From Halichondria panicea (taxonomy: Eukaryota > Porifera > Demospongiae > Suberitida > Halichondriidae): a stretch of DNA of 64,000 nucleotides. The notes under the pieces were generated by a model. That model saw only the letters and a program-made list of their open reading frames with translations. It searched no databases and had not been told where the DNA came from. Where the stretch lies: NCBI RefSeq assembly GCF_963675165.1, contig NC_087388.1, positions 6,047,651 through 6,111,650 of the forward strand. Direction: 5' to 3'. A program made the translations under genes and the position numbers. This document shows positions 9,411 to 63,829 of the stretch, in pieces (the first letter of the stretch is position 1; every line of letters begins with the position of its first letter).

Positions 9411-11600
9411 ACTGACCCTATAGTACATAACTATTGTGCTGCACATGCACGTACAAGTGCATATCATTGTTATATGTACCCTGTACTCCCCCTATGCAAT
9501 GAGCCTTCTTCATTCCCAAAAAATGTGACATAATAATTATATATGACGTAGACATAAGACGGCAATCTTCTATTAAATATCCACTATCAGCGAAACCGAT
9601 CAATCCATAATAATCACAAAAGATTGCAGGAGTGTTTACGATATAGAGAAGATTGCCGTCTTATAAATACAACTGACACGAGCATGATTCTCGGTGTTAT
9701 CTTATGATAAGCCATTTTTGTAGTTATGTAAAAGTAATGATCTTTACCAAAAATGGACATTGATGCCTCAATATAATTACCGATTGATGCTAAAATTATT
9801 CAAAAATTATTCTGAGCATAATTTATCATGATCAGGCCCAATGTTGCGCGTAGTGATGTAGCCAAGATGTGAAGACATGTATAGCAACTACCGTATAAGG
9901 TGAAATTTTCGAGGGGCTTAATTTTCGTGGATTTCAGGGGTTAGCAATCCTACACGAAAATTAAGTCCACGAAAATTGTTCTTTAATTAGAATTATCTTC
10001 TATAACGTGCAAAGATTAAAGGCGTGGCTTCCGGTAAGCAGTCATTTCCATGAACATTGTGCAACGAAATGCTTTTAGAGGCCATGATAATGCATTCCAC
10101 GAAATATAAGTGCCTCAAAAACTTCGCGCTATACTGTATATATATAGTTGCTATGCCAATTTTTAAACAAAACAGTTAGTCGGCTATAATTTAATATAAT
10201 TATATATGAAAAGTATGGGCATGTAACACAATATGACATTTCCTTGTATAAATCATTGACTCACATGGCATGAAAATCTCAGTCTAACATATATAATTTT
10301 AATGTATACATAATTATAGTATATACAACAGTATCTTAGCAACTACCATGAAGTTGAATATTGCACACACCAAAGCAAATAAGTTTGGAGTGCTCCGTTT
10401 GCCATTGCTGATACTCACACCCTCAACACTCACACCCTCAACACTAGTACGATTAACAGGAAATACTAGAGCAACAATACACAGTTCATCATTGTCCTCA
10501 GCCATAGTGATACTAGTAGATAGTGAAATGGTACAGCGGTTGATGTTATTGTCATAAAAAATGACGCAGGATTTCTCACTAATCGCATGGATATTATACT
10601 GGTGAGAAATTCCAGAGATGCGTAGATTGATGGTAGTAGGTACAATAGTGGTACAGATCACCAGACCAGCGTATAAATAGGAGTTTTTATCGACCACTAT
10701 TTTTGTAGACAGCTCGTCTCGATTGAAGCAAAAGTCAACGATAAAACCAGTTTGTATACCAGTTTTAAGAAACTCGATATATATTTCCAGGTCATCATAT
10801 ATCACTAGAATAACTGGGCAATCACATGAGCTGGACACAATACCTTGAGATGGGGTAATTGAATATGTTAGACTGGACCCATCCAAATAATAACCTTCGT
10901 CAACGTGTTGTATTGGTCTAGTTACGCTCAGAGAGATCGATTTATCCACAGCAATACGGTCAACATCCAGTTCTTGACAATCTTTGACTGTGAAGACAAT
11001 GAGAGATCCGTGAGAAAACCGGATTTTTTCGAATACAGTGAAAGTTATCGAGTCATATGCATGCTTGATAAACGAGTTAACAAAGATTATATACCCCCCA
11101 GGCAGTTCGTATATGCTGTTTACAGTGATGCTTAGGTTTTTTTCTGATACAGGAAGGACAGTAGTCATGTCTGCTACAGCAATTGCAGGAAACACTAAAG
11201 AATCGTCAGAAACATTAGTTGGCGGAGTTGATGTTGTCCATGGAGATTCAGAAACAGTAGTGTATATGATGGGTGGAGGTGAAGTTGATGTATCAGAATG
11301 AGATAGCTCTAGTGTGAGAACAGGCAGTAAGACTGCTAAGACCACCACTGTTAGTACCACAATGACGACCAATAAGATTATTATCGTCAACAGCCACGAC
11401 CATTTGCAACGCCTTGAATGCTGAAGAAAAAAGTTGAATACATGTATACATTCAAGTTTAGGCTTACCATTGTCACCAGAGACTGATCGCCAGTGCTGGA
11501 TATTTCCCCATGATTGGATGTGTCAGCTTGGCTTGCGTAATCTGCATACATCAGTGCATGTTGTAAATAGAATTGGTCCCTCGGTGCATTAACTTACCTG
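9411..11600. repeat. Duplicated block (copy at 58,041-59,998)
   Basis: The stretch from CTGACCCTATAGTACATA onward, through spacer, MITE remnants and the DD gene A ectodomain and linker exons, matches 58,041-59,998 in the same orientation. The copy here keeps about 250 bp (around 9680-9980) missing from the other. Each copy is followed by an M-type gene, so the duplicated unit was DD gene plus M gene. Confidence 0.7.
9891..10136. mobile_element. MITE, CCGTATA-type
   Basis: Starts CCGTATAAGGTGAAATTTTC and ends with the complementary GCGCTATACTG, flanked by TA. Inside are CACGAAAATT words and TTCCGGTAAGCAGTC. Related copies lie at about 16,449-16,646 and, without its left part, 58,385-58,550. 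Confidence 0.55.
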
Positions 11601-12081
11601 TAGTGGGATCAAGCTGACTTCTCTGATCCATCTCACTGATGTTGGTCATTTCCATTATGCTACCTTAATTAATAAAATAATTATGATCAAAATTATTGTT
11701 ATACAGGTACCACTAACCATTTGTTGAACTCAGCCTGTACCCTTTAGATACTGTGTGTCCAGCATGTCCACTAAGACGTCTTTCGACCACCTTAGCGAGA
11801 TCATTGTGCCCAACACTAGAGCGTGAGAGAGCCTCAAACACGTCTGTCCAGTTTCTCTCACCACCTTTTAGCCACTCTGATAAACCCTCAAGATAGCAGT
11901 TATCAGGATCTTCATGAGATCTTATATTGATAGTTTCAATAGTAGTATTATTAACTTGCAGAGCTAACAACATCTGCTTCCATTTAGCTCTAGCTTGAAA
12001 TGTTGCTTCATAGACTCCACTAAGATCATTCAAAGTTATTAGATTTTGGAGTCCTTCACGATGGTTAGAGCGATTATGCAT
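10314..12081 (-). CDS. Gene A: Death domain - TM - ectodomain protein
   Basis: Four minus-strand exons: 12081-11718, 11663-11598, 11541-11468 and 11420-10314, with compatible phases (1,1,0), giving 536 residues. The Death domain (about 18-105) has ARAKWKQMLLALQ, DNCYLEGLSEWLKGGERNW and ALSRSSVGHNDLAKVVE. A Ser/Gln-rich linker leads to RRCKWSWLLTIIILLVV, a single long TM segment near residues 180-205 with no preceding signal peptide, so the Death domain should be cytosolic. The ectodomain has SSSCDCPVILVIYDD and a conserved Cys set; the last 22 residues are hydrophobic. A MITE-broken CARD exon lies upstream, so the original start may have been there; the ATG at 12081 is a choice. Confidence 0.7.
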
Positions 12082-12590
12082 ATACCTGCTGAGTTAGCTT
12101 GATCCACAGCTTCTAATTCCTTGTACTTACACAGTAAAAACAGATTCGTTATAATAACATAAAACATCTCAAATAAAATGCATCATTTGAAATTTAATGT
12201 AGAAATGACAGAAATTTATGTCATTTCTACATTAAATTTCAAATGATGCATTTTATTTGAGATGTTTTATGTTATTATAACGAATCTGTTTTTACTGTGT
12301 ATCTGTAAGCACTACAATTAAGGAGGAGGTCATCATGTCGCTCATTCCTTTCCCTAAGTATTGCAATGAATTTATCATAAATTCCCGGAAAACTTTTGAC
12401 TTTTGCCTGCAATTCTAGTACTAGTATCCTGGGTTTTGCCGTGTTTGTTTTGTCCAGCTGATTGATTTCCTGATTCGTTTCGTATGGTTTTGGAACAAAA
12501 CTCCAAGGTTTCCTCCTGGATCTGAAGCAAAGTCAGCAACTAGCTGCTCGTTGCAACTCACCAATACATCGTAACCAATATTTGTTGTCA
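12082..12590 (-). pseudogene. Type-B CARD exon of gene A, broken
   Basis: Minus-sense MTTNIGYDVLVSCNEQL begins at about 12590 and follows the intact copy at 22,897. After FQNH a short deletion shifts the frame to a stop at about 12421. Further downstream the coding similarity continues to the ELEAVDQ end but is split by the palindromic MITE at 12130-12299. In the relatives this exon would be the 5' end of a CARD-Death-TM gene. Confidence 0.65.
12130..12299. mobile_element. Perfectly palindromic MITE with TA target duplication
   Basis: Two 81-bp arms (12130-12210 and 12219-12299) are exact reverse complements by inspection, around an 8-base loop. Termini are CACAGTAAAAACAG; the flanks are TA on both sides (12128-12129, 12300-12301). 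The empty site is visible in the CARD exon at 22.6 kb (CTTGTACTTATCTGTAAGC). Exact arms and intact TA point to a recent Tc1/mariner-type non-autonomous insertion. Confidence 0.85.
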
Positions 12591-12596
12591 TTATAT

Positions 12597-13860: not shown

Positions 13861-13866
13861 GTGTCA

Positions 13867-15056: not shown

Positions 15057-18000
15057 CTAATAAAAAAAAATAGTATAACTAATATATAAAATTAACAAAG
15101 TAAAAACTATAATAAAACATAAATATAACATTATGTATAGACACAATTTGAGTGGATTCGAGTTACAAAACTTATGATGTGACTGTCGGCTGTAACAGAT
15201 TCGAACTGATCTGTTGGTTTTCAGTTTCTTGCAATAATTGTAAAAGATTGGCAGTAAAAGCCACACAAGAAAGAGCATAATTATCATTAGCCACGCAACA
15301 AGTAAATTTATTGATGAGAAGGTTGAATAGGAATACTGGAGTTCTGCTTTCCTTACAACATCACTAGCATTTCGTTTGGAAACAACTCCTACGATACACA
15401 ATTCTGGTGTGTTCACAAAACTGTTAAAGTTGTGATTGCACTCTGTTGTAGCTGTGGATGTTATTGAGCAAAAACTTGTGAAGGAGCTAGTTGAGTTTTC
15501 CTCCTTCCAACCATTGATACGATAAGTTATGTTTTCCATGACATGTGAGTTGGCTTCAAAATGGACACCAACAAAATAATAGCCCTTTCCTGCAAGCATG
15601 ATACTGATCGAGAAATTACTATTTTTGATGCAGTACTCCATATAGGTGAACGTCCAAAATCCATTGTGCAAAAAGGATTCATATTCGTCAACATTGTCAA
15701 AAACCACCAAAACTACTGGACATTCTGAGCTGTTATAGTCAGCAGATACTTGAATTTCTAGCCTCAAAAAGGTGTTATATTGTGTGTAGAGCTCATAAAT
15801 TGGGGTATTTTCTTCTGGAGTGAGAACCCCTTCCTCGTATATTGTGGTATTTTCTTTTCTGATATCATCACAATTGCTGATGTTGAAGTAAATCGGAATA
15901 ATCTGAGTATTAGTGATCTCGTTAATTGTTAGTTGCGTTACATTCGGTCCGACTCGAGCTATAGGTAGTACTGACTGCTGGATCAGTTGAGTGATATGTA
16001 CTGAACCATGATTGGGTTTTGGGCTTAATAATATCGTGGAGAACAATGCAGAAGCAGAAGATAATGCAAAGAGAGTAATAATAAAAAAGAATAACAATAA
16101 GTTAAATGTTCTCTTTAGGCTTCCATAAGTAGTCAGAGTACAGCATCGACAAAATACCTATAAAGGTCCAATGAAAAAGGGATGAACATTAATGAGTTTT
16201 ATGTCTCAATGCAATAGCTTATACGTTACCCTGGATGTCCAAACATCACTGTGGTTGTTAGCAAAGTCGAGGCATCTGGCCATTATGGTATCCCGCTGCA
16301 TGTGCAGATAATAGAGATATCATGCACCATGCAGCATTTAGGTAATCGAACAGCTAAACAAGTACAGTTTAGATCATGCACACAGTGCAATTTGATTGAT
16401 CACAACAAAGTGTCAAAGGTTCATTAAGAAAAATACCATGAACTCACTATACTGTATATAGCGCGAAATTTTTGCTGTTTTCTTGGGTTAGCAATCCTAC
16501 ACGAAAATTGTTACTAAAACGTAAAGGCATGGCCTGTGAATGTTTCCGGTATAAGCAGTCAACCCCCATGAAATATTTATTCCAAAATGCGTTTAGAGGC
16601 CAATCCATGAAATTCAAGTGTCTGGAAAATGTTGCACTATACGGTAATTAAACTGTGGGAGAACCATAACCGCATTAACTATGGTAACTACTTCATGCTG
16701 CATCTAATTCTTACCTTATGTTTTTGTTTTGAATCAGTAATTATAAGGTCAACCTCAGAGTTTGAATCATTGGGTTGTGTGCGGAGTTCCTTTATGATTT
16801 CTGAACCTCGTGACAAGGTAGTAGATTGCCGCTGGAGAGAAGTCTTTGCAGGAGAACGAACATGTGGAGAACAAGAAACCACATCATTGTATGTGGGAGG
16901 ATCTTTTTCAGGAATTGTAGACAGTTGAGGATTTTTAATATACTCTGATTCAGAAGCTGTTGTCTCATCAATTGGAGTACATCGTTGACTCGGCTCTGAA
17001 GTATCATGTCGAAGATTTCTTGATTGTATGGTATAGCCATACCTTTCAGCCCGACTTTGATCTGTGCATGTGTGCACGAATAATTATATTATACACATGC
17101 ATGCAGTGCATGCATTCGTAAAATATAGTGCATGCACTCACTGCATGTGAGTATGTATATATGCAAGAGTATATCTATATACCTTTGATTATGTGAACCT
17201 ACATGATAAGCTGGCACTGACTGCTGATGAGAGAGCATCCACTGTAGATGCACTAGTCATTGAATTCAAACCGTCCTCCTGAGTACTTGTGGTGTCATCT
17301 GTGAGCAAAATATACATATTACATGCATGCATGAATACATATGCGGTCAAACCTGCACTGGGAGACATTGGCAATGCATCTGCGTTAATGCATATGGGTT
17401 TGTCTGACTCATAAACACTCATGTTTGCAAATATTTCATCGCACTCGACCAGCACTCTCAAAACGTTTCGATGTTGCTTTTGATGTGCAATGTCAAAAGC
17501 AGTTAATCCAACGTTATTTCTAGCGTTGACATCACTGAGCTCAAGAAGATATTCGGCAGCTCCTTCGTTGTTGAATCGAGCAGCTGTGTGCAGAGGTGTG
17601 TCTCCATCTTCATTCACAACTGAGACATTATGATGGTGTGTTTCGACCAATTGGGTGACTAAGAGTCCCCATTTTGACCAATCCCAGCGACAGGCAAGAT
17701 GGAGAAGGGTCATTCCATCACTGTCCCTGATTGAACTGACATCAAGTGTTGAATCAAGCCCTATCAGTGAGGCTAAGGCAGAAGTCGGGTCACCACCATC
17801 TTGGCCAAACGCTTTTAGCAGCTTCTTTGTTGAATCACCTTCTGCCTGTAAAGTTTAAGCGCTAGAATACATATACATTGTTTAGAAGTACAGCTAGCTG
17901 CATTAGAATATAAAACAAGGTACTTATGTACCACTTCAGTATGTACAAGTCTAGTGAATATAGTTATTACCTTCAATATTACTTGTTGACCAATTTTGAC

Positions 18001-21000
18001 CTCAATGAATGCATTTTCTTTCAGGTGCTGCATTTGTTCAGGACTCAACTGGCTGTAAACATGCCTAAAATAAGCTGGAACTCTAAACACCAGCTCTGTA
18101 CAGCCTTCTTGAACATGCTTCAAATTCAGAACTTGGTGTGGTAGTAGTTGTCCCCAGCAATTCACAAAAACTAACTTCAATTTTTGAATTTGATCGAAGG
18201 TGATTGCATCAAAGTCAACATCGATCTTACATGTTATCTCCACTGATTCAATGTGAGACGGTTGAGGGCCAAAGTCATCAACAAATAGAAAACATCGTCG
18301 ATTAATATATTGCTGAAAGAAATGCTCATATCTCACTAAAGATGGATCATTTTTATTCGAGAAAAGAAATTCTTCTCGTATTGCGGAAATGAGTGAATAA
18401 TTGAACCAAGAGCAGAAATTATTCTGTAAGTAGTCAGACAATTCGCTAAAACTGGTAACATCACGGATCAGAATCTCTTCAGAAGGTTTGCGATAAATTT
18501 TGTTGAAATACGATCCTTGTGGTGTTAAAAGTGCCTGGACGTACTGCTTCACTTTAGTAATGTCATATTGTTTTTCCAGATTCGTAATCGTGTTTGTGAG
18601 TAAGCTACAAAACTTCGAATGAATGTTTTGTGTTTCATTATGTAGGGCTGTCTTGAACGTACTATAAGAGATTTCTGTGGATGATACTCTGTTTTCACTA
18701 CAAGGAGTGTCACGAGTGAATCTTTTAATTTGAGGTGGCTTGGAGCTTAAACACTTATCCCTGCCAGTGACATGACCCAAGATGGTACACTTTCCACAGC
18801 CGCATTGGAAGTTAAAAAATGTCCGATCTGTATTAGAATCAGAAGCCGTGAGTGATTCGATTCCAGATGAGCTTGTACTGACAGATCTCGGTGTTAATTC
18901 TCCACCTGCTTGATCTTCGTAGTCCACTGTGGCAGAATGCATCTTGTCATATTAAGCGAATGGAGGCACATGCAATAAAATCTCACTATAATTGTAAGTG
19001 GTACCAAGGGCGTATAAAGAGAAGAGAGCATGCAACTACAATCTATCATATTATAAATGGACGGAGGCGTATGTCTAAAATAGACAAAATTTATTGTATG
19101 TGCACTTTATACTCTTCGTCTATTCCCTAGTGGGCGGTTGGCTAAATACCTGCTGACTCATCAATAATATGACGCATGTATACACAGTATACATTACGAG
19201 TTGCATGCGCCCTCTCTCTTCTTATGTATAGGCCCTTGATGATTAATTTATAGTTGCACTTACTGGTTGCAACAATCCTCTGTGGTTCTACTGGAACTTC
19301 AGTTTCTGCATGCAATTGCAATACAAAACTCATACACAATTTATAGCGTAAACTGTAGCTATAATACTGCATATGAATTACACCATGAGTTCAGTACGCA
19401 ACTCCAATAGTATATGGAATGCCAAATAGGTCTAAAATACATCCCACTCATTCGGATGTCCCACATGCTACATCAATCTTTACCCGCGGCCATGCCCAAC
19501 TAAGAACAGTTTTATATACAGTATTATCAAATAGGATTGAGGAGAGGGTAGCCGATAGATGTCAAGTAGCCGATAGATGTCAAGTAGTGTATACGTGGGT
19601 AGTAGTGTGGGACACCCAAATGAGTGGGATGTGTTTTTGGCGTTCCATACAATAGACTGTACACAAAAGGTATTCAGTCTGCCTAAGACCCCCATTATTT
19701 GCAAGACAAGACAACATACCACAAATATTTCATAAGGATGACATCATAAAACAGTGTTTCATATAGCCTTGATTCCAGGCCGCAAAGAGAAAGGCAGCCT
19801 GGTATACCTATGCGCATGCGCGAAATAGTTGACAGCAATTTCATCATAATTATACAAATTCTAAAAAAAACGGACAAAGTTACAAAAAGGAAGAATACGT
19901 ATGACAATGTGACCACAATGGCAGCTTTCAGAGACACTTAATCAAAGTAGAATAATTATGCTGCAGCAGTGTTGCTTCTTTTAGCTCTGTTTATCAAAGA
20001 GAGAGTTCAAGAAGGCCTCCCAAACAGCTAGAGCTGCCAGCTGGGAAGAGTGGTGCATGGGCTCTTTAATACATCAGTAGATCTTGAGTGAATAACTTCC
20101 TGAGTGTCAAGCACGTTAAAGCTTATTAAAAGCTTTCAGGAATGATCATTAGCTTCTTTATCTTCAGCAATGACTATCTTGTCGAACATAAAGGCAAGCA
20201 GAAGACTTGCCTGGTCCATATTACCACAGCCTCATCAGGGGACCCACAGGAACACATCATGCCTTTCCTATAACATCTGTAGACTTACAGCGTAGGGTGT
20301 CGTTAAGTAGAGACTTGGCTTAATACAATAAAGGGGGTAAGAACTCAGTCGTCTCTTTGCACAATACTTCTAAATAAGTTCTATGTAACGGACTGTAACT
20401 TCAGAATACAAACAGTATACGGTTTATTTTACTGACAGTATCCACAAATACACGGACTACCCCGGCCCTTTTTGGGGTAATGTACGCGCATGCGCCAGTG
20501 GCGTAGCTAGGATTTTGGGAAGGGCAGGGCTCAAATCCGTTGAGCAGGGCCAGAGCAGGCGCTGAATAGCAGCAGTAAGCATGCGCAGTAGATGGCCCTG
20601 CCTACATTTACATTTCCATTGAATGACATCATTCTAGTAACTACGCATTTGGAGTTGATGAAGCACAAAAGGGGGGGGCTCTAGCCCCGTCAGCCCCCCT
20701 CTGCCTATGCCACTGTGTGCCTACTAGGTATAACAGGCCGCCTTTTTCTTCGTGGCTGGAATCGAGGCTATGTTTCATAATGATACCCCGAAAACTCTAC
20801 CAGATTGTAGTGAAGGGTGATTTTTTTCTAAATTTCCAAAGCTCATAACACTGAACTCGAACTTGTTTCTAGGAGATGAATTAGGAATGTGTTGACTCAG
20901 CAAGTTTAAGATTAGTGTGAGCAAAAAGTCAAAGTTAAGCTCTTTCTGAATAGTCTTTGTGGTTGGTGGAACTCATGGCTAGCTGCATATCTCCAGATGT

Positions 21001-22897
21001 GAAAGGAACCATGCAGTGACTGCCAGTCTCTAACGTATCAACTAGTGTATCTGATGCATGTGATGCTTTGCAGCAAGCTAGAAGGCTTGAAGTCATTCAC
21101 GATGTGTTCTATGCTATTGCCAAATTGTGTATTAATGTCAAAGTTTGTGTAACTGCTTTGCAAACACGTTCATTTGTATGGCATTTACCTTATTTAAACC
21201 AATTTTTAGCTTGCTACATTGATGGTGAACAGCTTGCTCAAAAAGTCAATGTATTTATTGTATGTTAACCTGCATGTCTTCTTGATACATATTTCAACTA
21301 TCAGAAACAAAGAAAAACGGTATATGCAGCTGTTTGCATAGACCTTGCTAAATCAGCTCATTGCATTACCATGCACAAAACCATAAAATCACCATACAAT
21401 GTTGCTATGCAAACAACATGTAGTCCTAAGCAATGATGGCTTCTAGCACTTGTATGGTACTTTTAAGGCTACAAAAATGGCTAATGCGAGACCCTCGAAA
21501 ATTACCCGGTATATATATATAAGGTGGTATCAAGTAAATGCTCTATCTACTCTTGGTGGTATGGAAACTCGTGAGGATCTGAAGTGGAGAATGAGCTGGG
21601 ACTAGCTTGCATGCATATGCCAGCAGATAATTATGATATACATGTATAGCTACTAATCTGTCCACTGAATGTATGGAAAGCAATGTGAAGGCTGAAGAAA
21701 CTGTTAGTACTGCAAAGGACCTCAAACACTGACAGATCACAAAAGATAGTTTAAGCCTGCTGCTTATACGAGAAATGTGAAATATGTTCGGACTTGTTGG
21801 TCAAAACCGATATACCACAGTGAGCAATCAGCTTCTTTAGCGTAAACATTTTTCGTTCAGCATGCAAGTCTCAGCACAAGGTGTTGATAGACCATTCTCT
21901 CCACTTCAAATCCTCCCGGTTCTATGAGTTTCCAATAGTCTAGTTCTAGAAGCCACCATTGCTCACTTTTACATGTACATGTCTAGCATAGCAACATTGT
22001 ATGGTTTTGTGGTAATGCAGTGAATGGTTTTGCAAGGTCTGTGCAAACAGCTGTATTCATGAGCAACTTGTAGCACTTCTTCCTGTCTTGGTTGGGGTCT
22101 TAGGGCAGACTGATTGTCTGACCTAGGCACAGATACTCACTATTGTAACTGCAACTAGTATAGGACTATGTTATTCCAGGAGCCCATGCAGAAGGAGCAG
22201 CTGACTACGGGGATCACGTTTTGTAAGTGGCTATATACGGCTGCATTTCCATATAAATATGTGCAGAGTCACTAAGTGGTTGAATCCCTACACGTGTTAT
22301 ACCGCAATACAGGGCTGTGGTTTGTAAGCACTTAGTCGCTTGCATAAAATTACGAAACATGATCCCCGAGGTGTAAAAATTACGAAACATAATCCCTGAG
22401 TGTACGTTGAAGTTTAAACTTCAATGCAACGTACACTCAGGGATCATGTTAGCCGCTCCTTCTCATAATTTATTTATGGGCTCCTGGGCCTTTCCTACTG
22501 GCAGTTGTAAATGAATAACATTAGTGATAATTATGAATAAACTCTAGATTACACACATACCTGCTGAGTTTGTTTGATCCACAGCTTCTAACTCCTTGTA
22601 CTTATCTGTAAGCGCTGAGATGAGGTCATCATCATGTCGCTCATTCCTTTCCCGAAGTATTGTAATGAATTTATCATAAGTTCCCGGAAAACTTTTGACT
22701 TTTGCCTGCAATTCTAGTACTAGCATCCTGGCTTTTGCCGTGTTTGTCTTGTCAAGCTGGATTTCCTGATTTGTTTCTTCTGATATCAGATGGTTTTGAA
22801 ACAAAACTCCAGCGTATCCTCTAGGATCTGAAGCGAAGTGAGTAACTAGCTGCTCGTTGCAGCTCACCAATACAACGTTACCAATATTTGTTGTCAT
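15057..22897 (-). CDS. M2: CARD - conserved domain - ankyrin - TM - ectodomain protein
   Basis: Eight minus-strand exons: 22897-22561, 19305-19264, 18926-17971, 17845-17353, 17298-17203, 17061-16715, 16295-16230, 16157-15057. All junctions are in phase and total 3,438 nt (1,145 aa), which supports the model; the join of the first two exons across a 3.3-kb intron is the weakest. Order: type-B CARD (1-112); C-x-C-x2-C motif near 168; conserved unassigned domain with FNYSLISAIREEF, FLFVDDFG and GCTELVFRVP (to about 445); three ankyrin repeats (DGMTLLHLACR, DGDTPLHTAAR, VGLTAFDIA); Ser/Thr-rich linker with PPTYNDVV, a PPxY motif; Cys-rich FCRCCTLTTYG before a TM near 800-822; ectodomain with SSECPVVLVVFDNVDEY and ELCIVGVV; then two more hydrophobic segments. 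No signal peptide, so the N-terminus should be cytosolic. An alternative start would be the ATG at 18942. Confidence 0.75.
16449..16646. mobile_element. MITE, CCGTATA-type, in an M2 intron
   Basis: Runs from ACTGTATATAGCGCGAAAT to GCACTATACGGT; shares TTAGCAATCCTACACGAAAA and a TTCCGGTATAAGCAGTC word with the copy at 9,891. It lies in the intron between the PPxY exon and the next M2 exon. Confidence 0.55.
19764..20770. mobile_element. 1.0-kb TAGCCT-ended element with 9-bp target duplication
   Basis: Starts TAGCCTTGATTCCAGGCCGC and ends GGCTGGAATCGAGGCTA; TGTTTCATA flanks both ends exactly. No transposase reading frame. A second element is nested at 20496-20715. Sits in the long first intron of M2 and accounts for about a third of it. 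Confidence 0.8.
20496..20715. mobile_element. Nested MITE with CAGTGGCGTAG termini
   Basis: Begins CAGTGGCGTAGCTAG and ends CTGCCTATGCCACTG; the outer 10 or so bases are inverted repeats (CAGTGGCRTAG). The termini are hAT-like. A target duplication is not clear. Confidence 0.6.
21322..22065. mobile_element. Foldback element with about 120-bp inverted arms
   Basis: Arm at about 21322-21460 (CAGCTGTTTGCATAGACCTTG ... CAATGTTGCTATGC ... GATGGCTTCTAG) is matched in reverse complement at about 21945-22065, with small gaps. The middle shows no supported gene. Confidence 0.55.
22176..22487. mobile_element. MITE with CCAGGAGCCCAT termini
   Basis: Left CCAGGAGCCCATGCAGAAGG and right end GGGCTCCTGG are inverted, with further pairing of GAAGGAGC/GCTCCTTC and of GGATCA words. 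A second internal palindrome (AGTGTACGTTGAAGTTTAAA) lies near 22,410. Located in the first intron of M2. Confidence 0.65.
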
Positions 22898-23910: not shown

Positions 23911-23956
23911 ATTCTCATGCACAAAGCTTAGTATTGTTCACTTTTTGTCAAGCATC

Positions 23957-29557: not shown

Positions 29558-29663
29558 AACAATGATTATAGCTAAAATTAATGATTCACTGTTTCTCTCA
29601 GTATGCATGTGGTTGGCTAACTGTACACAAAGATGTATAAAAAAGGGCATGCATCAGATACAA

Positions 29664-34500: not shown

Positions 34501-34676
34501 TAGGATTATTGGTGATTATTTATATCTATAGCTACAAACTGATCCTTTGCATGTGAATGCATGTGTTGCAATTGACCCAGTATAAACAGAGCCCTAATTA
34601 AAGACACAACACAACCATCATGCAAATCATTTTGCCCCCAGCGGTGGGAGTTAGCTTCGATTACAGGCCACCGGCG

Positions 34677-36215: not shown

Positions 36216-36259
36216 AAGTTAAATGTTTGTTTGTCTAAGTTGATCTAATACCACAATTT

Positions 36260-47345: not shown

Positions 47346-47451
47346 AACAATGATTATAGCTAAAATTAATGATTCACTGTTTCTCTCAGTATGCATGTGG
47401 TTGGCTAACTGTACACAAAGATGTATAAAAAAGGGCATGCATCAGATACAA

Positions 47452-51732: not shown

Positions 51733-51784
51733 ATTTTCATAATAATAATGCTAAAAGCTTATTGTTCACTTACTGTCAAGCATC

Positions 51785-54700
51785 ATGTCTGAGTCAGCTG
51801 AGTACAAAGCATTCAAGGACTGTCACAGCAGTCTTATTACTTGCATCAAGCAGTCTCCCAAAGATATCTGTGATCATTTACTCCCTTTTGAGATTCTAGC
51901 ACCAAACGATCGAGATTATCTCAAGAATGACACTCATGATGATGGTGACAAAGCACGACGAATACTTGATGCTGTACTGCTCCAGATGGAAAATAGTCCA
52001 CTGGTTTTTCATTCATTCGTTAGTGCTCTTGAAAAAGCTGGTAGTTTTACGAAGGCTGGTGTACAAAAACTCAATGATGCATTACAGAGACAACATCAAC
52101 AGTGCGATCAAAGTCAAAGAATAGAAGAGAGTGGTAGGTTGTATAAATATAAATCCTAGATTGTATTATGAAAACCCAACTCATGGATTACTATGTATGC
52201 AGCCAATATCCGTAAGACATTGTTAACTGACCTATTTTTATGATGCCTATACTGGACTATAGCGGGTTCCGAATTAAAGAAGCGTATGAAAGGATTGAAG
52301 CCCAGATCTAGAGTCAGCGATGCATGAAAGCATACCCAACCAATCAAATAACTGTATAATTATATTATAGACTCTATATAATTATATCTAAATCTACAAC
52401 AATTTTCACCTCACTAGTCTAGCTGGAATTAAAAGGAGAAATCAGAGTACACTAATTGACCTTACGTGCCAATGTGTATATAGAATAGTGTATAGAGCAA
52501 TCTCACTTCACACTCTGTATAGTAGTTGATTTTAATAATTTAAGGCTTACAAAGGCTTGCATTTCACGTGAGTTGAAAAGTGACTTAAGTGTGTGAAAAG
52601 CAAATTAATCTCAGTTCACTGATTTTGTATATACAGGATATGAGAGCTATCCAATAAACCTGCTACAACCATTTCCTATGCCGTTTGGATTTGTCATGGC
52701 TGACGAAACTATATCAGGTACTTTCTTTATAATTATAAAGGCTCTATTTATAATAGGAACTGTACTGTAACACAATAGTGGTACTGGCTTCTTTTCTTCA
52801 TACATGTACTGTACTACTATATACATAGGCATTCTTGAATTACCCTCCGTGGATGATAAAGAGACACTACCTAATCCATTAGAGCACCCTCCTGATGACG
52901 CTGAAGTAGGAGCAGACCTCAGAGCAGCTGCAACAAGTCGACAAGAAGCCCCTACTGGTATATATGTGAATGGAATTAACAGTTGTGCTATAATGTGTGT
53001 TTACTAATTGCTACAGTTGATACATTTGAAGGACGATTGCTACAAACCTTCCAAAGTAGAGAATTTGAACAAGCCATTGAGCTTCTATCTCAGGCTGAAA
53101 GTCAGTACATTGATCTGAGAGGTGTGTCTGATGCAGATGGCAAAACTCTCCTTCATCTTGCATGTCGTAATGACTGGATGGACTGGCATGGCATTGTGTG
53201 TAGCCTCATCGATAAACACCATTGCGATGTCACAGCAGTAGATGAAGATGGGAACACACCTCTTCATGAGGCATATCAATGTGGCAATCTCTTATCAGTA
53301 AAGTATCTGCTTAGCTTACCGACTTGTAATCCTGATGCAGTCAACAAGCACGAGTACACTGTGCTGAGAATGGCCCTTGAAAAGAATGACAGAAAATCTG
53401 TAAGAAATCTTTTAGCGACAGGACGAGTCGATCCTAGGAAAGGTAGCTCATGTGGTCATACATATCCAGAACTACTTGCAATAAATCAGCTTCAACCACA
53501 ACCACAAAATTACGATGGCTCAGCTCTTCAAATGGTGACTCAGTTCGCAAAATGTATGGAGAGTAGCAAATGCAGTATTTGCCCGCCTTTCACTTCTTAT
53601 TGCTTGCGAGATACCCTCCATAAAATCTTGAAGAATCGTGATCAAGTTTCAATCCCTAAAATAGTAGATTGTATTAAAGAGAACATGTTGCCTCTTCCAG
53701 CAAACCCAGACGAGATTCATGATTTGCTTGTGGATATTCAAAGCTTGTCAGACGAGTTTAACATATGTACTAATGAATTAGGGGAACTTCAAGTTCAAAG
53801 AAGAGACACAGCTTTAAGTATGTTACAGTAGCTCTATTGCATTATAACTATAACTGTGTCATAATTATGTATACAGGATATGAGAGCTATCCAGTGAGCC
53901 TGCTACAACCATTTCCTATGCCGTCTGGATTTGTCATAGCTAATGAAACTATATCAGGTACTTACCGTATAGCGGGTATATTTCGAGGGTACAAATGTTC
54001 GCGGTTTTCGCGGATTGAGTCTGTACCGCGAAAATTTATACCCACGAAAATTTATGAATAGTAGGCGTGTTCAGTATTATGGATTCGAGGCTAACGGTGT
54101 GGCGGTACAGCTGCATGTTGATGTGCGCATGCGCCAAAAGGCTGGAACTCAGACCACGAAAATAAAATCTGCGAAATCCTTTGTAGAGGTCCATCCGCGA
54201 AAATTTATACCCTAGAAATATACCCGCTATACGGTATGTTATACAGAAGGCTATGTATAGGAAATTATAACTATGCTGATACAGCTCTTGTGCCAAATAT
54301 AGTTAGCTATGATGCAGTGCTAGTATCTCTTCTTTTCTTGTGTAGTTCTTGAGTTACCTACCATGGGCGATGGGGATGGAGAGACACTACCTGATCCATT
54401 AGAGCACCCTCCTGATGACGCTGAAGTGGGAGCGGACCTCAGAGCAGCTGCAATAAGTCGACAAGAAGCCCCCACTGGTATGTGACTGTAGTACTTGTGC
54501 GATAATTATGACGGATGTATTAACACAATTGCAGTTGATTCATTTGAAGGACGATTGCTGCAAACCTTCCAAAGTGGAGAATTTTACCAAGCCATTGAGA
54601 TTCTATCTAAAGCTGAATATCAGTCCATTGATCTGAGGAGTGTGTCTGATGCAGATGGTAAAACACTCCTTCATCTTGCATGTCGCAAAGGCGGAGTAGA

Positions 54701-57700
54701 CTGGAAGAGCATTGTGTGTAGCCTCATCGATAAACACCATTGCGATGTTGCAGCAATGGATGAAGATGGGAACACGCCCCTTCATGAAGCATATCAATAT
54801 GTCAATCTCTCAATAGTAGAGTACCTGCTTAGTTTACCGACTTGTAATCCTGATACCATAAACAAACAGGAGTACACTGTACTGAGAATGGCCCTTGAGT
54901 TAAATGACAAAAGGACTGTGAGAGATCTTCTAGCGACAGGACAAGTCGATCCTAGAAAAGGTAGCTCACGTGGTCATACATATCCAGAACTACTTGCAAT
55001 GAATCAGCTTCAACCACACAATTACGATGGCTCAGCTCTTCAAATGGTGACCCAGTTTTCAGAGTGCATGGAGAGTAGCAAATGCAGTATTTGCCCGCCT
55101 TTCACTTCTTATTGCTTGCATGATACACTCCACAAGATCTTGAAGAATCGTGATCAAGTTTCAATCACTGAAATAGTGAATTGTATTAAAGAGAACATGT
55201 TACCTCTTCCAGCAAACTCAGACAAGATTCATGATTTGCTTATGCATATTCAAAGCTTGTCAGACGAGTTTGACATACGTACTGACGAATTAGGGGAACT
55301 TCAAGTTCAAAGAAGAGATACGGCTTTAAGTATGTAGCTCTATATTGTGATTATATGTCCATATAATTATATACAGGATATGAGAGAAATCTGCTACAAC
55401 CATTTCCTATGCCGTCTGGATATGTCATGGCTGATCAAACTACATCAGGTACTTTCGTTATATCGAAGGCTCTATACAATTGTACTGTATGATATAACTC
55501 CTGCGTCAAATGTAGGCAGTCATGCATATATACACATGCAGTGCTGGTTTCTCTTCTTTTCTTGTAGACATTCTTGAGTTACCTACCACGGACGATGGAA
55601 AGACACTACCTGATCCATTAGAACACCCTCCCGATGACGCTGAAGTGGGAGCGGACCTCAGAGCAGCTGCAACAAGTCGACAGAAAGCACCTTCTGGTAT
55701 GTTTACAGTATACTTGTGCAATATAACGGATATATTTAAACAATTGCAGTTGATTCATTGCTGCAAACCTTCCAAAGTGGAGAATTTGAGCAAGTCATTG
55801 AACTTCTATCGCAGGCTGAAAGTCAGTCCATTGATCTGAGAGGTGTGTCTGATGCAGACGGCAAAACTCTCCTTCATCTTGCATGTCGCAAAAACTGGGT
55901 GGAATGGCACCACATCGTGTGTAGCCTCGTCGATAAACACCATTGCGATGTCGCAGCAGTGGATGAAGATGGGAACACACCCCTTCACGAGGCATATCAA
56001 TGTGGCAATCTCTTATCAGTAGAGTACCTACTTAGTATACCGACTTCTAATCCTGATGCAATCAACAAACACGAGTACACTGTACTGAGAATGAGCCTAG
56101 AGGCAGATGACAGAAAAACTGTAAGAGATCTTTTAGCGACAGGACGAGTCGATCCTAGAAAAGGTAGCTCACGTGGTCATACATATCCAGAACTACTTGC
56201 AATGAATCAGCTTCAACCACAAGATTATGATGGCTCAGCTCTTCAAATGGTGACCCAGTTTTCAGAGTGCATGGAGAGTAGCAAATGCAGTATTTGCCCC
56301 CCTTTCACTTCTTACTGCTTGCGTGACACCCTCCATAAAATCTTAAAGAATCGTAATCAAGTTTCAATCACTGGAATAGTGAATTATATTAAGAAGAACT
56401 TGTTACCTCTTCCAGTAATCCCAGATGAAATTCATGGTTTACTTCTTGCCTTGTCAGACGAGTTTGACATGTGTGGGGAGCCTACTAACAATTTTGGAGG
56501 AATTCAAGTCAAAAAGAAAGGTATTAAAGTGGGTATATATTTCATGTGCACAGGCATGTATAGCAATTGTTACACGCTTATAATTATATTCCACAGGAGC
56601 TAGATCTGCAGCAGCACACTTTCAACATGATATTCAACAGCAGAGGGCAGGGCAATCTCCTGGGAATTTCGAATTGCTTGCAGCTAGCAGCTTCACTGAA
56701 GTTGAGGTGCCAGCTGCAGCCAAAAATATCACTGAAGATGAAGAAACACCTGACTACCACTCCGATGCAAGTGACGCAGTGCCCCTTTTGCAACAATCAC
56801 ATACAGAGGTATATAATACCAATACTAGCTATGGCAAAAAGGCAAAAAGGCATACTAAACGAAATTCTAGCCACGCATCTTCTGATAGGAGCTTAGTACT
56901 TTAATACGTGTACATTTTAGAACCTATATTTTCTTAAACAGGTGCAGAAATCAACACGAAGTTGTAATATAGATGAGTCCGACGTTTACTGTGCATATAC
57001 AATGTGCTTATTTTGTTACTTTTGTTGGTTTGTTGTCTTCTTGATTCTCGGAATATGTGGTGCAGTATTGTACAATGGCTATTCATTTGTTGGTACTACT
57101 GATGTGGTACAAATTCACCGGCAATCTGTGCCACTAATTGCTATTCATAATTTATCAGCTAATTTCATTCGGCTCACAGAGATCAATGAAACAGACTTAG
57201 TCCCCATTAGCTTCTACATGTTAAACGATTGCTCTTCTAAAGATGTATTTATAGACATTAAGATCAATGAGATTGTGACTGTAAGCTTTGACTCTCCGAC
57301 TGACAAGAGCAAGGCTGTTACTGAGTGGTATCTCCTTGGAAACACTACACTTACTGTAGATATCACCACTGTTGTCATTTCTAACTTTTCAACCAATCAT
57401 TGTATTGCGTTTTTTCTTGTTTTCGACAGTGTCAACAAGTTCTCAAACTTCATTTCAAGTTCTTCTTTAGATAAAGAATTCTATTACAAAGAATGTATTG
57501 CAAATGAAAAATCACAAACGATGAATATAACATTCAACAAACCATCATACTACTATATTGGTTTGTACACAGACATTCCCACTGAAGCTACTACTTTCTC
57601 TTTACACTTTCTCGGAACATATCTTCAATATGAAATTTCAAACGGGAACGCTGTCTGTACTATAGACTCTCTTGATAATTTAAATTGTGATTTTTCTCCA

Positions 57701-57922
57701 AATATACTAAATACCAACCAGCAAAGTTGTATTGTTGGTTCTGTTCCACCTATATATACTGATACACCATTTGGAGTAAAAAGAGCAACTGTAGCCCTTT
57801 ACACTGCTGCTAACTCAGACGCAGCAATAGATGCATATTTTTTTATTCCTCTGTTATTGTCTGTTTTCTCATTTTGTACTGTGACTATATGTTTTTGTTC
57901 CAAACTTTTTTATGATAGTTAG
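51785..57922 (+). CDS. P4: CARD - triplicated ankyrin cassette - TM - ectodomain - TM protein
   Basis: Twelve exons: 51785-52133, 52637-52717, 52829-52957, 53017-53817, 53877-53957, 54346-54477, 54535-55329, 55377-55448, 55568-55696, 55750-56520, 56597-56808, 56942-57922. Total 4,533 nt, 1,510 residues, every junction in phase. Order: type-A CARD (1-116); three copies of a three-exon cassette (117-453, 454-789, 790-1113), each with a GYESYP-like linker, a PLEHPPDDAEVGADLRAA linker, and an exon with ankyrin repeats (DADGKTLLHLACR, DEDGNTPLHEAYQ) plus a helical domain with SSKCSICPPFTSYC; acidic linker (about 1114-1184); TM near 1204-1228 (CYFCWFVVFLILGICGAVL); ectodomain with NHCIAFFLVFDSVNKF, PSYYYIGLYTD and SCIVGSVPP; second TM near the C-terminus. 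No signal peptide, so both ends should be cytosolic. The first intron contains a relic of the P1 Death exon. Confidence 0.8.
52637..56520 (+). repeat. Internal tandem triplication of a three-exon cassette in P4
   Basis: Units 52637-53817, 53877-55329 and 55377-56520. All exon borders are phase 1, so units can be added or lost without frame change. Corresponding introns are alike in size (59/57/53 nt and 111/about 118/119 nt once the MITE of unit 2 is removed). Units are closely similar in coding sequence, suggesting recent unequal exchange. Confidence 0.85.
53965..54234. mobile_element. MITE with TA target duplication in a P4 intron
   Basis: Left CCGTATAGCGGGTATATTTC and right GAAATATACCCGCTATACGG are inverted repeats, flanked by TA. 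The inside is rich in CGCGAAAATTTATACC words. 270 bp. It accounts for the longer second intron of cassette 2 compared with cassettes 1 and 3. Confidence 0.85.
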
Positions 57923-58690: not shown

Positions 58691-58693
58691 ATA

Positions 58694-60000
58694 CATAATT
58701 ATAGTATATACAACAGTATCTTAGCAACTACCATGAAGTTAAATATTGCACATGCCAAAGCAAATAAGTTTGGAGTGCTCCGTTTGCCATTGCTGACACT
58801 CAAAGGACCAACACTAGTAAGATTAACAGGAGATACTATAGCAACAATACACAATTTTTCGTTGTCTTCAGTCATAGTGATACTAGTAGATAGTGAAATA
58901 GTACATTGCTTGATGTTATTGTCCTATAAAATGAAGCAGGATTTCTCACTAATCGCATGGATATTATACTGGTGAGAAATTCCAGAGATGCGTAGATTGA
59001 TGGTAGTAGATACTAGGTACAATAGCGGTACAGATCACCAGACCAGCGTATAAATAGGAGTTTTTATTGAGCACTATTAAATTTTTTGCAGACCACCGAC
59101 TTCTTCGGTTTAAGCAAAATATGAACAGAAAACCAGTTTGTATACCTGTCTTCTCCGCATTTAGAAACTCGGTATATATTTCCAGGTCATCATATATCAC
59201 TAGAATAACTGGGCAATCATGAGCTGGACACAATATCTTGAGATGGGGTAATTGAATATGTTAGAATGGACCCATTCAAATAATAGCCTTCATCAACGTG
59301 TTGTATTGGTCTAGTTACGCACAGGGAGATCGGTTTATTCACAGCAACACAGTCAACATCCAGTTCTTGACAATCGTTGACTGTGAAGTCAATGAAAGAT
59401 TCGTGTGAAAACTGGCTTTTTTTGAAACAGTGAAAGTTATCGAGTCGTATGCATGCTTGATAAACGAGTCAACAAAGATTATAGACCTCCCAGGAAGTTC
59501 GTATATGCTGTTTACAGTGATGTTTAGGTTTTTTTCTGATACAGGAAGGACTGTAGTCATGTCTGTTTCAGCAATTGTAGGAAACACTAAAGAATCGTCA
59601 GGAACAGTAGTGGGCAGAGTTGACGTTGTCCAAGGAGATTCAGAAACAGTAGTGTATACGATGGGTGAAGGTGAAGTTGATGTATCAGTATGAGATAGTT
59701 CTAGTGTGAGAACAGGCAGTAAGACTGCTAAGACCACCACTGTTAGTACCACAATGACAACCAATAAGATTATTATCGTCACCAGCCACGACCATTTGCA
59801 ACGCCTTGAATGCTGAAAAAAGTTGAATACATGTATACATTCAATGCAATGCTAGCTTAGGCTTACCGTTGTCACTAGAGACTGATCGCCAGTGCTGGAT
59901 ATTTGCCCATGATTGGATGTGTCAGCTTGGCTTGTGCGATCTGCATACATCAGTGCATGTTATAAATAGAATTGGTCCCTCAGTGTTAACTTACCTGTAG
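58694..60000 (-). pseudogene. Gene H: TM - ectodomain part of a DD gene, broken
   Basis: Minus-sense TM exon starts about 59812 (RRCKWSWLVTIIILLVV, then a Thr/Ser-rich stalk) and follows gene A closely, but small indels split the ectodomain at about 59,420, 59,225 and 59,015. Linker exons are recognisable at about 59,940-59,867 and near 59,998. No Death exon follows: upstream sequence is a fragment of a P-type gene on the other strand. Confidence 0.7.
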
Positions 60001-60011
60001 TAATAACCAGG

Positions 60012-60101: not shown

Positions 60102-60103
60102 TA

Positions 60104-60672: not shown

Positions 60673-63600
60673 TTATATCAATGTCAGTTCTAAAGTTTTG
60701 TATAATTCACGTCGATTGGGAAGCACAACTGATCCCTCTGAGTCTTTTTTCAGTTTCGTACAGTACTTCAGTTTCTTACAACAATTGTAGAAGATTGGCA
60801 CTAAAAGCCACAGAAGAAATGATGTAATTAGTAGTAGCCACAAACCAAGCAAAAATAATAATGCCATTGATGACAATATTGAATACGAATACTGGATTTT
60901 TACTTTCCTTACTACATCACTAGCATTTCGTTTGGGAACAACTCCTACGATACACAATTCTGGTGCGTTCACAGAACTGTCAAAGTTATGATTGCACTCT
61001 GTTGTAGCTGTGGATGTTATTGAGCAAAGGCTTGTGAACGAGCTAGTTGAGTTTTCCTCCTTCCAACCATTGATACAATAAGTTATGTCTCCCATGACAT
61101 GTGAGTTAGCTTCAAAGTGAACACCAAAAAAATAATAGCTATTTCCTGCAAGCATGATACTGATCGAGAAATTATCGTTCTTGATGCAGTACTCCATATA
61201 GGTAAACATCCAGTTTCCATTGTTCAAAAACGATTTATATTCATCAACATTGTCAAAAACTACCAAAACAACTGGACATTCTTGATCTGAGCTGTTATTA
61301 TAATCTGCTGATAATTGAATTTGCAACCTCAAAGAGGCGATATATTCTGTGTAGAGCTCATAAATTGGAGTATTTTCTTCTGGAGTGAGTATTCCTTCCT
61401 CGTATATTGTGGAATTTTCTTTTCTGATATCATCACAATTGCTAATGTTAAAGTAAATCGGAATAATTTGAGTATTTGCTATCTCGTTGATTGTTAGTTG
61501 CTTTACATTCAGTCCGACTCGAGCTATAGGTAGTACTGACTGCTGGATCAGTTGAGTGATATGTACTGAACCACCAAAGCTGTTTGATTCTTGGCCTAGT
61601 ATGAGTATTGCGGTGAAGATTGTTGTAACAGCAAAAATGAGTATAAAGATAGTAATCATACAAAGGAAGAAGAATATTTTCTCCTCTCCTTGCTAGTAGT
61701 TAGAGTGCAGCATCGACACAGTATCTAGGTCCAATGAAAGAGGATTATTTACATGAGGTTATGTCTCAAACACTGCATGCAATAGCTATGTAAATCACCT
61801 TGGACATCCAAACGTCACTGTGGTTGTTAACAAAAAAGTCAAGGCATCTGCATGATATCCCGCTGCATGTACAGATAATAGAGATACGTATTATAACCAG
61901 CATTTATTATACTGACTACTAAAGATTAGTTATTTGTCACACATCAGTTGTGCAATTCAATTGATCACAGCAAGGTGTCTAACAATTAAGGCTTTATAAA
62001 TATAAAACTATTACACACACCAGGAACTTAATTGTGGAAGAACTGCACAAAATTTATCTACCTGTTTTGAATCAGCCATTATAAGACCATCCTCGCCAAA
62101 CGCTTTTAGCAGCTTCTTTGTTGAATTAACTTCTTCCTGTACATACATGCAATGCCATGGTTTAGAAGTATACAACTATAGCTGTACAAGGTACAGAACA
62201 AATAAGACATGTACACTATGCACTTTAGTATTGTAAACCTAACGTGAATATACTTATCACCTTCAGTAATACTTGTTGACCAATTTTGACTTCAATGAAT
62301 GCATTTTCTTTCAGGTCCTGCATCTGTTTAGGACTCAATTGGCTGTAAAAATGACTAAAATAAGCTGGAACTCGAAACACCAGCTCTGTACAGCCTTCTC
62401 GAACATGCTTCAAATTCAGAACTTGGTGTGGTAGTTCTTGTTCCCAGCATTCTATAAATACTAACTTCAATTCTTGAATTTGATCGTAGGTGATTGTATG
62501 AAAATCAACATCAACCTTACATGTTATCTCCACTGATTGAATGTGAGACGGCTGAGGGCCAAAGTCATCAACAAATAGAAAACATTGTCGATTAACATAT
62601 TGCTGAAACCAATCCTTGTATCTCTGTAAAGCTTGGATCATTTTCCTTCACTGGGAAAAGAAATTCTTCTTTTATTGTGGAAATGAGTGAATAATTAAAC
62701 CAAGAGCAGACATTATTTTGTAGGAAGTCAGATAATTCGCTAAAGCTGGTAACATCACGGAAGAGAATCTGCTCAGAAGGTCTACGATAAATTGCGTTGT
62801 AATGCGATTCTTGTGGTGTGAAAAGCATCTGGACGAACTGCTTTATTTCAGGAACATCATACTTTGCTTCCAGATTCGTAATCGTGTTTTTGAGTAAGCT
62901 ACAAAACTTCGTGTGCATATATTTTGTTTCTTTACGCAGGGCTGTCATGAACATACTATATGAGATTTCCGTGGCTGATACTGTACCGCTATAAGGAGTA
63001 TCACGAGTGCATCTTTTAATTTGAGGTGGCAATTCAATTCTTGGTCATTCAAAGTCATCAACAAATAGAAAACATCGTCGATTAACATAATTATTGCTGA
63101 AACAAACACTCATATTTGTGTAATGCTTCATCGTCCTCATATGGGAAAAGAAATTCTTCTCGTATTTCGGATATTCGTGAGTAATTGAACCAAGAGCAGA
63201 AATTATTCTGTAGAAACTCAATTAAATCATTAAAGCTGATAGCATCACAGAGCAAAATCTGTTCAGAAGGGCTACGATAAATTTGGCTAAAATACGAACC
63301 TTGTGGTGTTAACAACTTCTGAACGTATTGCGTGAGATCATATTGTTCTTGTTTTTCAAGATTTATAATCGTGTTTGTAAGTAAGCTACAAAATTTCGAA
63401 TGGATTTTGCGAGTTTCTTTATTTAGGGCTTTCATGAAGAAGCTTACAGAAATTTCTGTCGGTGATACTGTATCACTACAAGCAGTATCACAAGTGCATC
63501 TTTTAATTTGAGGTGGCTTGGAGCTTAAACACTTATCTCTGCCAGTGACATGACCCAAGATGGTACACTCTCCACAGCCGCATTGGAAGTTAAAAAATGT

Positions 63601-63829
63601 CAGATGATCAGAAGTCGTGAGTGATCCAGTTCCAGATGAGCTTGTACTGGCAGATCTTGGTATTAACTCTCCACCTGCTTAAGCGAACATTTATTGGAGG
63701 CACATGTAATTAAATCTCACTCCAAGATAATTATGTACAATTGTATGACTTTATAATTATTATCCTTTAATTTATAGTTGCACTTACTGGTTGCAACAAT
63801 CCTCTGTGGTTCTACTGGAACTTCAGTTT
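60673..63829 (-). pseudogene. M3: decayed CARD-less M-type gene
   Basis: Minus strand: a 42-nt exon at 63829-63788 identical in layout to that of M2; a first conserved-domain copy (63677 to about 63050) that hits a stop after CLFQQ through a 4-bp TAAT insertion; a direct switch into the beginning of a second copy (PPQIKRCTRDT, about 63,032) with its own frameshift near 62,640; then an ankyrin exon cut after STKKLLKAFGEDG and fused to the end of the PPxY exon (LIMADSKQ). TM exon near 61,705 has a frameshift before MITIFILIFAVTTIF. The ectodomain (61,659-60,673) is open: QECPVVLVVFDNVDEY, ELCIVGVVPKRN, TM and a charged tail. The CARD exon would lie beyond the window. It is a pseudogene unless started at 61659. 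Confidence 0.7.

What the first reader, a model, noticed from the sequence alone, without database searches (positions are those of the whole stretch)
10314..63829. One membrane-anchored ectodomain family combined with three death-fold architectures
Seen: the C-terminal module with D/N-C, C-P/I-V/A-x-x-L-V-x-F/Y-D, Y/F-x-x-F, C, Y-Y-x-G and C-I/V-V-G/A-x-V-P is present behind (1) a Death domain (A, B, C, D, F, G, H), (2) CARD + unassigned domain + ankyrin (M2, M3) and (3) CARD + ankyrin cassettes (P3, P4). Established: CARD and Death domains assemble signalling platforms by homotypic contacts. Inference: this is a receptor system in which a common extracellular sensor feeds alternative cytosolic adaptors; tandem birth-and-death evolution suggests immune or self/non-self recognition. 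I know of no named family with this order and could not assign the ectodomain to any known fold.
Basis: partly seen in the sequence, partly recalled or inferred. Interest (0 to 1): 0.85.

Follow-up and report, generated by a model that had tools for sequence, protein, structure and literature searches.

The report
Cluster of two-membrane-span death-fold receptor genes
A probable sponge genome carries one 305-kilobase cluster of about fifty related genes and gene pieces that put the same cell-surface-like domain next to different internal death-signalling modules; it looks like a diversified receptor family, but only in sequence so far.

Summary
Confirmed and extended. The C-terminal module behind Death, CARD+"unassigned"+ankyrin and CARD+ankyrin exons is one homologous family: between-group profile comparisons 97-98% (E 1e-10 to 1e-13), reversed controls under 1%. 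It is a cysteine-containing loop flanked by hydrophobic segments, N-terminus predicted cytosolic. Merged by hand, 49 copies or pieces lie in one 305-kb cluster on C12; one relative on C6 has Death, M-domain, ankyrin and ecto exons in order. Ecto clades P, M, D are each monophyletic among 37 rows; upstream modules vary beyond three arrangements (by proximity). Two Death-type genes of the window (10 and 48 kb) join by GT-AG introns into open frames of 527 and 503 aa; other copies are broken. The "unassigned" domain ends in a TRADD-N-like part; Death-like/TRADD-N/ankyrin proteins are published for Amphimedon (PMC8195603). A link of the ectodomain to APD1-4_M proteins is suggestive only. Median dN/dS is below 1. 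Structure predictions failed. Best reading: receptors that seed death-fold signalling; new variant of a known kind.

The parts
10314..12081 (-). DD10 (script label A): Death exon 12081-11741, exon 11659-11598, exon 11541-11468, TM1-stalk-ecto-hydrophobic C-terminus exon 11420-10314; open model of 527 aa, start codon uncertain
   Evidence: matches
12284..12591 (-). CARD-beta exon upstream of DD10, frame-broken
15057..18951 (-). M2: M-domain (helical part, then TRADD-N-like part 18249-17962), ankyrin ORF 17854-17189, linker ORF 17083-16688, TM1-ecto-TM2 ORF 16157-15057 (this ORF holds a third hydrophobic segment behind TM2)
   Evidence: ORFs, Pfam ankyrin, tblastn, hydropathy; no whole splice model made
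22553..22897 (-). CARD-beta exon, open; nearest CARD found upstream of M2, assignment uncertain
2366..4222 (-). M1: CARD-alpha 4210-3884, M-domain 3532-2645, start of ankyrin; the next M-type ecto on this strand is outside the window at C12:6045476-6046129
27945..29653 (-). DD28 (script label C): Death ORF and TM-ecto ORF open, no acceptor of the second exon recognised
30279..32209 (-). DD30 (script label D): Death exon open; frame broken inside TM1 (189 aa model)
32595..34513 (-). DD33 (script label F): broken Death and ecto copy
45649..47441 (-). DD46 (script label G): Death exon open; frame broken inside the ecto (437 aa model)
48069..49845 (-). DD48 (script label H): Death exon 49845-49514, exon 49415-49351, exon 49285-49215, TM1-stalk-ecto-hydrophobic C-terminus exon 49112-48069; open model of 503 aa, start codon uncertain
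50201..50551 (-). CARD-beta exon upstream of DD48, frame-broken
58792..59851 (-). DD59: broken Death-type ecto copy; no Death exon found by the searches made
60673..63678 (-). M3: partly doubled, broken M-domain; TM1-ecto-TM2 ORF 61692-60673 open
36239..39495 (+). CARD-gamma ORF 36239-36610 and ankyrin ORF 38752-39495; no ecto of their own before the CARD of P3
42808..44502 (+). P3: CARD-gamma ORF, linker and TM1 ORF 43409-43681, ecto-TM2 ORF; frame break between TM1 and ecto
51755..57922 (+). P4: CARD-alpha ORF 51755-52159; three ankyrin plus helical cassettes (52980-53831, 54492-55337, 55740-56603); TM1-ecto-TM2 ORF 56921-57922
   Evidence: no whole splice model made

Best explanation
A tandem family of membrane receptors in a probable sponge. 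The N-terminal CARD or Death domain (in some members with TRADD-N-like and ankyrin parts) sits in the cytosol, a first span crosses the membrane, a disulfide-bonded, probably mostly-beta domain of about 220 residues is exposed outside or in the lumen, and a second hydrophobic segment follows. Binding or clustering of the ectodomain would bring the cytosolic death-fold domains together and seed homotypic assembly, leading to caspase or NF-kB type output. Shown here: homology of the ectodomains, hydrophobic segments on both sides, the cluster, varied upstream modules, open splice models for DD10 and DD48. Inferred: topology, disulfides, ligand sensing, death-fold assembly, output, immune role.
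For: Homology of the three groups and of the C6 gene. Hydrophobic segments flank the ecto; basic residues lie on the predicted cytosolic side, e.g. HSRRCK before TM1 in the Death type, RKRNLVR after TM2 in C6. Conserved cysteines. N-glycosylation sequons 139 against 94 in shuffles over 29 related, hence not independent, ectos. Death identity: the five window exons against nine Pfam-Death hits of the same genome 81% E 1.2e-5, with relatives 75% E 2.5e-5, with three bridge sequences added 96% E 1.2e-9 (the bridges lift this), reversed 0.7-3.3%; a relative at C3:8275393 matches the window exon (E 2.3e-9) and Pfam Death over cut-off. CARD: 36260-36607 over the Pfam cut-off (E 3.7e-5), four others E 1e-4 to 1e-3 below it; NOD1 CARD at E about 0.01 in the PDB search. 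C6 exons Death, M, ankyrin, TM-ecto-TM in order on one strand within 3.9 kb. Open models for DD10 and DD48.
Against: No transcript, location, ligand or signalling data. Structure predictions useless (pLDDT 36 and 43). Window Death exons reach only E 0.12 in Pfam or no match, and PDB search with their profile gave four designed proteins and a ribonuclease. In the CARD PDB search the best hits were Sin3 proteins (E 2e-4 upward), ahead of the CARDs. Most window copies are broken. DD28 and DD48 end in a bare hydrophobic tail without basic residues, which may be a GPI signal; M2 has a third hydrophobic segment; Death-type ectos have no sequon excess. No full splice model for P, M or C6.
Confidence: 0.6

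Rival explanations
1. Polymorphic self/non-self (allorecognition or aggregation) locus: the ectodomains recognise partners between individuals and the death-fold parts trigger rejection.
For: One dense cluster of near-identical and diverged copies. Death-type ectos differ more between paralogues than their Death exons (median dN 0.19 against 0.05), although dS differs too (0.28 against 0.10), so the ratios are 0.68 and 0.52.
Against: One genome only, so polymorphism cannot be seen. No gene-wide dN/dS above 1. Sliding windows: 1 of 16 above 1 in the D set (near the C-terminus), 0 of 14 in P, 0 of 14 in M; 5 of 16 in a three-sequence D subset, too small to weigh.
Confidence: 0.15
2. Membrane-anchored regulators or decoys: tethered death-fold domains that hold or titrate soluble partners, with the ectodomain mainly structural, as in double-anchored tetherin (recalled comparison).
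Against: Conserved cysteines and constraint in P and M ectos; M-type and C6 continue into a basic tail behind TM2.
Confidence: 0.15
3. The ecto exons and the death-fold exons belong to separate neighbouring genes and only look fused.
For: P-type loci have kilobases between CARD and ecto; M2 has no adjacent CARD; the one CARD-M-domain beside a P-type ecto (C12:5929007-5934047) has a broken ecto.
Against: Death and ecto keep the same order at 1.2-1.4 kb in nearly all Death-type loci; same order in the C6 locus; 5 of 11 Death-type loci examined give open four-exon models.
Confidence: 0.1

Closest known systems
Death-like plus TRADD-N plus ankyrin proteins of the sponge Amphimedon (NCOA6-clade TRADD-N expansion, PMC8195603; passages seen, not the whole text)
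   Same: N-terminal Death-superfamily domain, TRADD-N-like part with a Gly-Cys turn, ankyrin repeats, large expansion, variable C-terminus
   Different: The passages seen name no membrane-spanning ectodomain for Amphimedon (its figures and source data were not seen); here a TM-ecto-TM module follows, and Death-type members have no TRADD-N-like part
Crassostrea virginica TRADD-N receptors (PMC8195603; passages seen)
   Same: Extracellular domain, membrane span, Death-superfamily and TRADD-N parts, lineage-specific expansion
   Different: There the ectodomain is N-terminal with one span; here it is C-terminal with hydrophobic segments on both sides. The two ectodomains were not compared
APD1-4_M proteins (PF16041; plant E3 ligases by Pfam title; genes on C8 and C17 of this genome)
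   Same: TM1-ecto-TM2 layout, similar order of features by eye, weak profile match
   Different: Match below the Pfam cut-off; no death-fold part in the open frames read
TNF receptors and NLRs (recalled)
   Same: Death-fold signalling output
   Different: No TNFR, NACHT or LRR domain appeared in the Pfam scans of the window pieces

Membership tests
Death domain (PF00531) | homology to established Death domains | tested here: met
   Profile-profile 75-81%, 96% with bridges, reversed 0.7-3.3%; relative C3:8275393 matches both queries. The window exons alone do not reach the Pfam cut-off (E 0.12 or no match)
CARD (PF00619) | significant profile match | tested here: met
   1 of 5 window CARDs scanned is over the cut-off (E 3.7e-5), 4 below it at E 1e-4 to 1e-3
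TRADD-N | profile match to TRADD-N models | tested here: inconclusive
   TRADD-like_N in 3 of 12 scanned (best E 0.0043), NCOA6_TRADD-N in 2 of 12 (best E 0.024); the window member M2 matches neither. Whole frames: 2 of 10, below cut-off. No PDB hit
TRADD-N | tiny residue plus Ser (occasionally Cys) in the beta2-beta3 turn | tested here: met
   Cys in 14 of 14 rows, Gly in 13 of 14 (L050 lacks it); Gly-Cys in 12 of 12 of the subset without L042 and L050; motif as described in PMC8195603. That it lies in that turn is inferred, no structure
APD1-4_M ectodomain (PF16041) | Pfam match over cut-off | tested here: not met
   7 of 28 members at E 0.1 or better, best 0.0011, 19.6 bits against cut-off 25
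APD1-4_M ectodomain (PF16041) | loop between two membrane spans | tested here: met
   hydropathy of C6, M2, M3, P4 and of the APD1-4_M genes L021, L025
APD1-4_M ectodomain (PF16041) | profile-profile relation to APD-like genes of this genome | tested here: inconclusive
   All ectos together against L026+L028 48% E 1.8e-4 and against APD+L026+L028 55% E 1.2e-4, best of 40 shuffles 19.9-20.0 against 35.7-36.8; but against APD alone 1%, and P, M, D or C6 alone against L026+L028 only 0.1-1.8%

The most novel reading that the evidence does not exclude
A previously unreported animal receptor class in which one TM-loop-TM sensor domain, built on an APD1-4_M-like beta domain, is exchangeably wired to Death, CARD, CARD-ankyrin and TRADD-N-ankyrin outputs within a single fast-turning-over locus, serving as a sponge self/non-self or microbe recognition complex derived from a single-copy Death-TRADD-N-ankyrin-ecto gene like that on C6.
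Probability: 0.25. Interest if true: 0.85.

Novelty: new variant of a known kind. Interest (0 to 1): 0.6.

Why it matters
If true, it ties the published sponge TRADD-N/Death-like expansion to a membrane sensor and gives one concrete locus, with about 49 ecto copies or pieces and one unclustered relative, in which polymorphism, expression and signalling can be tested. That such clustered surface receptors with death-fold outputs are otherwise unknown in sponges is my recollection, not a search result.

Tried and rejected
AlphaFold of the ecto (8 window sequences) and of Death (5) gave mean pLDDT 36 and 43; no fold search was run on them. PDB sequence searches: no hit for the ecto or the TRADD-N-like part; chance-like hits for Death, the M-domain and its helical part. 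Ecto search in viral contigs and in bacterial and archaeal genome contigs: no relative; eukaryote proteomes could not be searched. Gene-wide positive selection rejected: pairs above 1 are 1 of 119 (P), 0 of 21 (M), 0 of 43 (D), 3 of 43 (Death); pairs with dS of 0.01 or less or undefined were dropped before the count (1 of 120 P, 2 of 45 D, 2 of 45 Death). C6 splice model: first junction good, the best-scoring second junction made a stop, so no full model is claimed. The CARD-M-domain beside a P-type ecto at C12:5929007 is kept as juxtaposition only, its ecto is broken. APD1-4_M membership not claimed; ectos of one group alone gave no match to L026+L028, and the first comparison of APD with L026 alone gave 0.65%. 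Whether the combination is in print was looked for only (listings and starts of abstracts) and in passages of PMC8195603 and PMC12909245; absence from print is not established. Dropped from the count of 49: the C6 copy, weak hits C4:704349 and C1:14021206 and overlapping hits on the same places; split pieces of broken copies were merged by hand. Rows L042 and L050 were left out of the TRADD-N-like subset.

Full report
What is there. The window is C12:6047651-6111650 of a 131-Mb eukaryote genome in 39 contigs. tblastn with module queries places 11 ectodomain copies in the window: seven of D-type (- strand; Death exons or their remains beside six of them), two of M-type (- strand) and two of P-type (+ strand).

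One family. Profile comparison: P-M 98.1% E 1.2e-13, P-D 97.0% E 9.2e-11, M-D 97.4% E 1.4e-11; reversed controls 0.1-0.4%. The alignment of 28 rows has 7 invariant columns, four of them cysteines, and two more cysteines nearly invariant. A tree of 37 rows (the copies I fetched, not all copies) makes P (18), M (7) and D (11) each one side of a branch with support 99-100.

Where else. Searches of the own genome with one member of each group, and with the C6 copy, place the convincing matches in one stretch, C12:5.874-6.179 Mb, and one at C6:5882387-5883031. Merged by hand, the cluster holds 20 P, 8 M and 21 D copies or pieces, the P on + and the M and D on -. The C6 locus has, in order on one strand, Death, M-domain, ankyrin and TM1-ecto-TM2 frames; its ecto is closest to M (99.4%, E 5.9e-22) and related to P and D (97.4%, 97.6%). 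It may resemble the ancestor; the root was placed on it by choice, so this is inference.

Architectures, by proximity. Same-strand modules upstream of each of the 49 ectos within 12 kb: Death alone 10; CARD-beta plus Death 4; one CARD plus M-domain before an M ecto 6, with two CARDs 1, M-domain alone 1; CARD-gamma alone before a P ecto 4, two CARDs before a P ecto 3; CARD-alpha or -gamma with one to three helical cassettes 10; CARD-alpha before divergent D ectos 2; CARD-alpha and M-domain before a P ecto 1 (ecto broken); no module 3; other mixtures with Death 4. Ankyrin exons were not mapped over the cluster. Proximity is not proof of fusion.

Splice models. For the Death type a shared pattern of three GT-AG introns (phases 2, 1, 0) was read from an alignment of 10 loci and tried on 11. 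Open from Death to the end of the ecto: 5 of 11 (DD10 527 aa, DD48 503, L032 510, L035 503, L031 483 with a shortened Death part). Not open or not completed: DD30, DD46 and L034 meet stops, DD28 lacks an acceptor, DD33 lacks the second donor, L033 lacks the first donor by the pattern used. The first donor (GTACAG) is not a strong one and the start codons of DD10 and DD48 are uncertain. No transcript was available.

Identity of the cytosolic parts. CARD: (with Sin3 proteins ahead of CARDs in the PDB list). Death: weak in Pfam, linked by profiles. The M-domain has a helical part and a C-terminal part of 92 profile positions with Cys in 14 of 14 and Gly before it in 13 of 14 rows. TRADD-like_N and NCOA6_TRADD-N are its two most frequent Pfam matches, in 3 and 2 of 12 scanned, best E 0.0043 and 0.024. 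PMC8195603 (passages) reports 357 Amphimedon TRADD-N proteins, the majority of architectures with 1-3 Death-like domains before it and ankyrins among the most common parts behind. The cytosolic order is therefore already known.

Ectodomain. Hydrophobic segments flank it in C6, M2, M3 and P4; M2's frame has a third; Death-type exons have a strong TM1 and a weaker C-terminal hydrophobic tail. Seven of 28 members show weak PF16041 matches (the five seen in detail are P-type). The same genome has 12 PF16041 matches over cut-off, 10 on C8 and 2 on C17; L021 and L025 of these have two spans. L026 (PF16041 E 0.51, below cut-off) and L028 (found with L026, E 1.9e-18) act as bridges: all ectos together match them at 48% E 1.8e-4 and APD genes match them at 54% E 1.3e-4, above 40 shuffles; but ECTO against APD alone is 1% and single ecto groups give 0.1-1.8%. 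I take this as a lead (about 0.6), not an assignment.

Evolution. Median pairwise dN/dS 0.52 (P, 16 sequences), 0.34 (M, 7), 0.68 (D, 10), 0.52 (Death, 10): constraint, not gene-wide positive selection. Sliding windows exceed 1 in 1 of 16 (D), 0 of 14 (P), 0 of 14 (M) and 5 of 16 of a three-sequence D subset. Near-identical copies, e.g. M-domains at C12:5889486 and 6065612 (100%) and P4 with its twin at 5984038 (99%), fit recent segmental duplication; two haplotypes joined in one contig are not excluded.

Mechanism and verdict. Best reading (0.6): surface or luminal receptors whose clustering seeds death-fold assembly. Known: death-fold outputs and their TRADD-N-ankyrin coupling. Apparently new, within the searches named in Tried and rejected: their coupling to a C-terminal two-span ectodomain and its clustered diversification with varied N-terminal modules.

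Noticed in passing
C1:15.49-17.36 Mb and C6:0.00-0.80 Mb: Many Death exons related to those of the window, in arrays.
   Followed up: no
C8:5481986-5610812: Ten APD1-4_M matches close together; frames read include glycine-rich N-termini and two spans.
   Followed up: partly
C12:6078010-6081181 and 6122166-6125335; 5978719-5984727 and 6099435-6105440: Repeated blocks about 44 kb and 121 kb apart with near-identical modules: segmental duplications or haplotype joins.
   Followed up: partly
L040 (C10:4389800-4391300): An M-domain relative continues into a kinase-like match (Pfam E 3.9e-4, below cut-off).
   Followed up: no
L001:182-1325: Open frames just upstream of the C6 gene read like a UBA5-type ThiF enzyme (recalled from the sequence, not tested).
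   Followed up: no
window 25381-26163 (+): Two short open frames with cysteines and hydrophobic stretches; not matched by the module queries, otherwise not examined.
   Followed up: no
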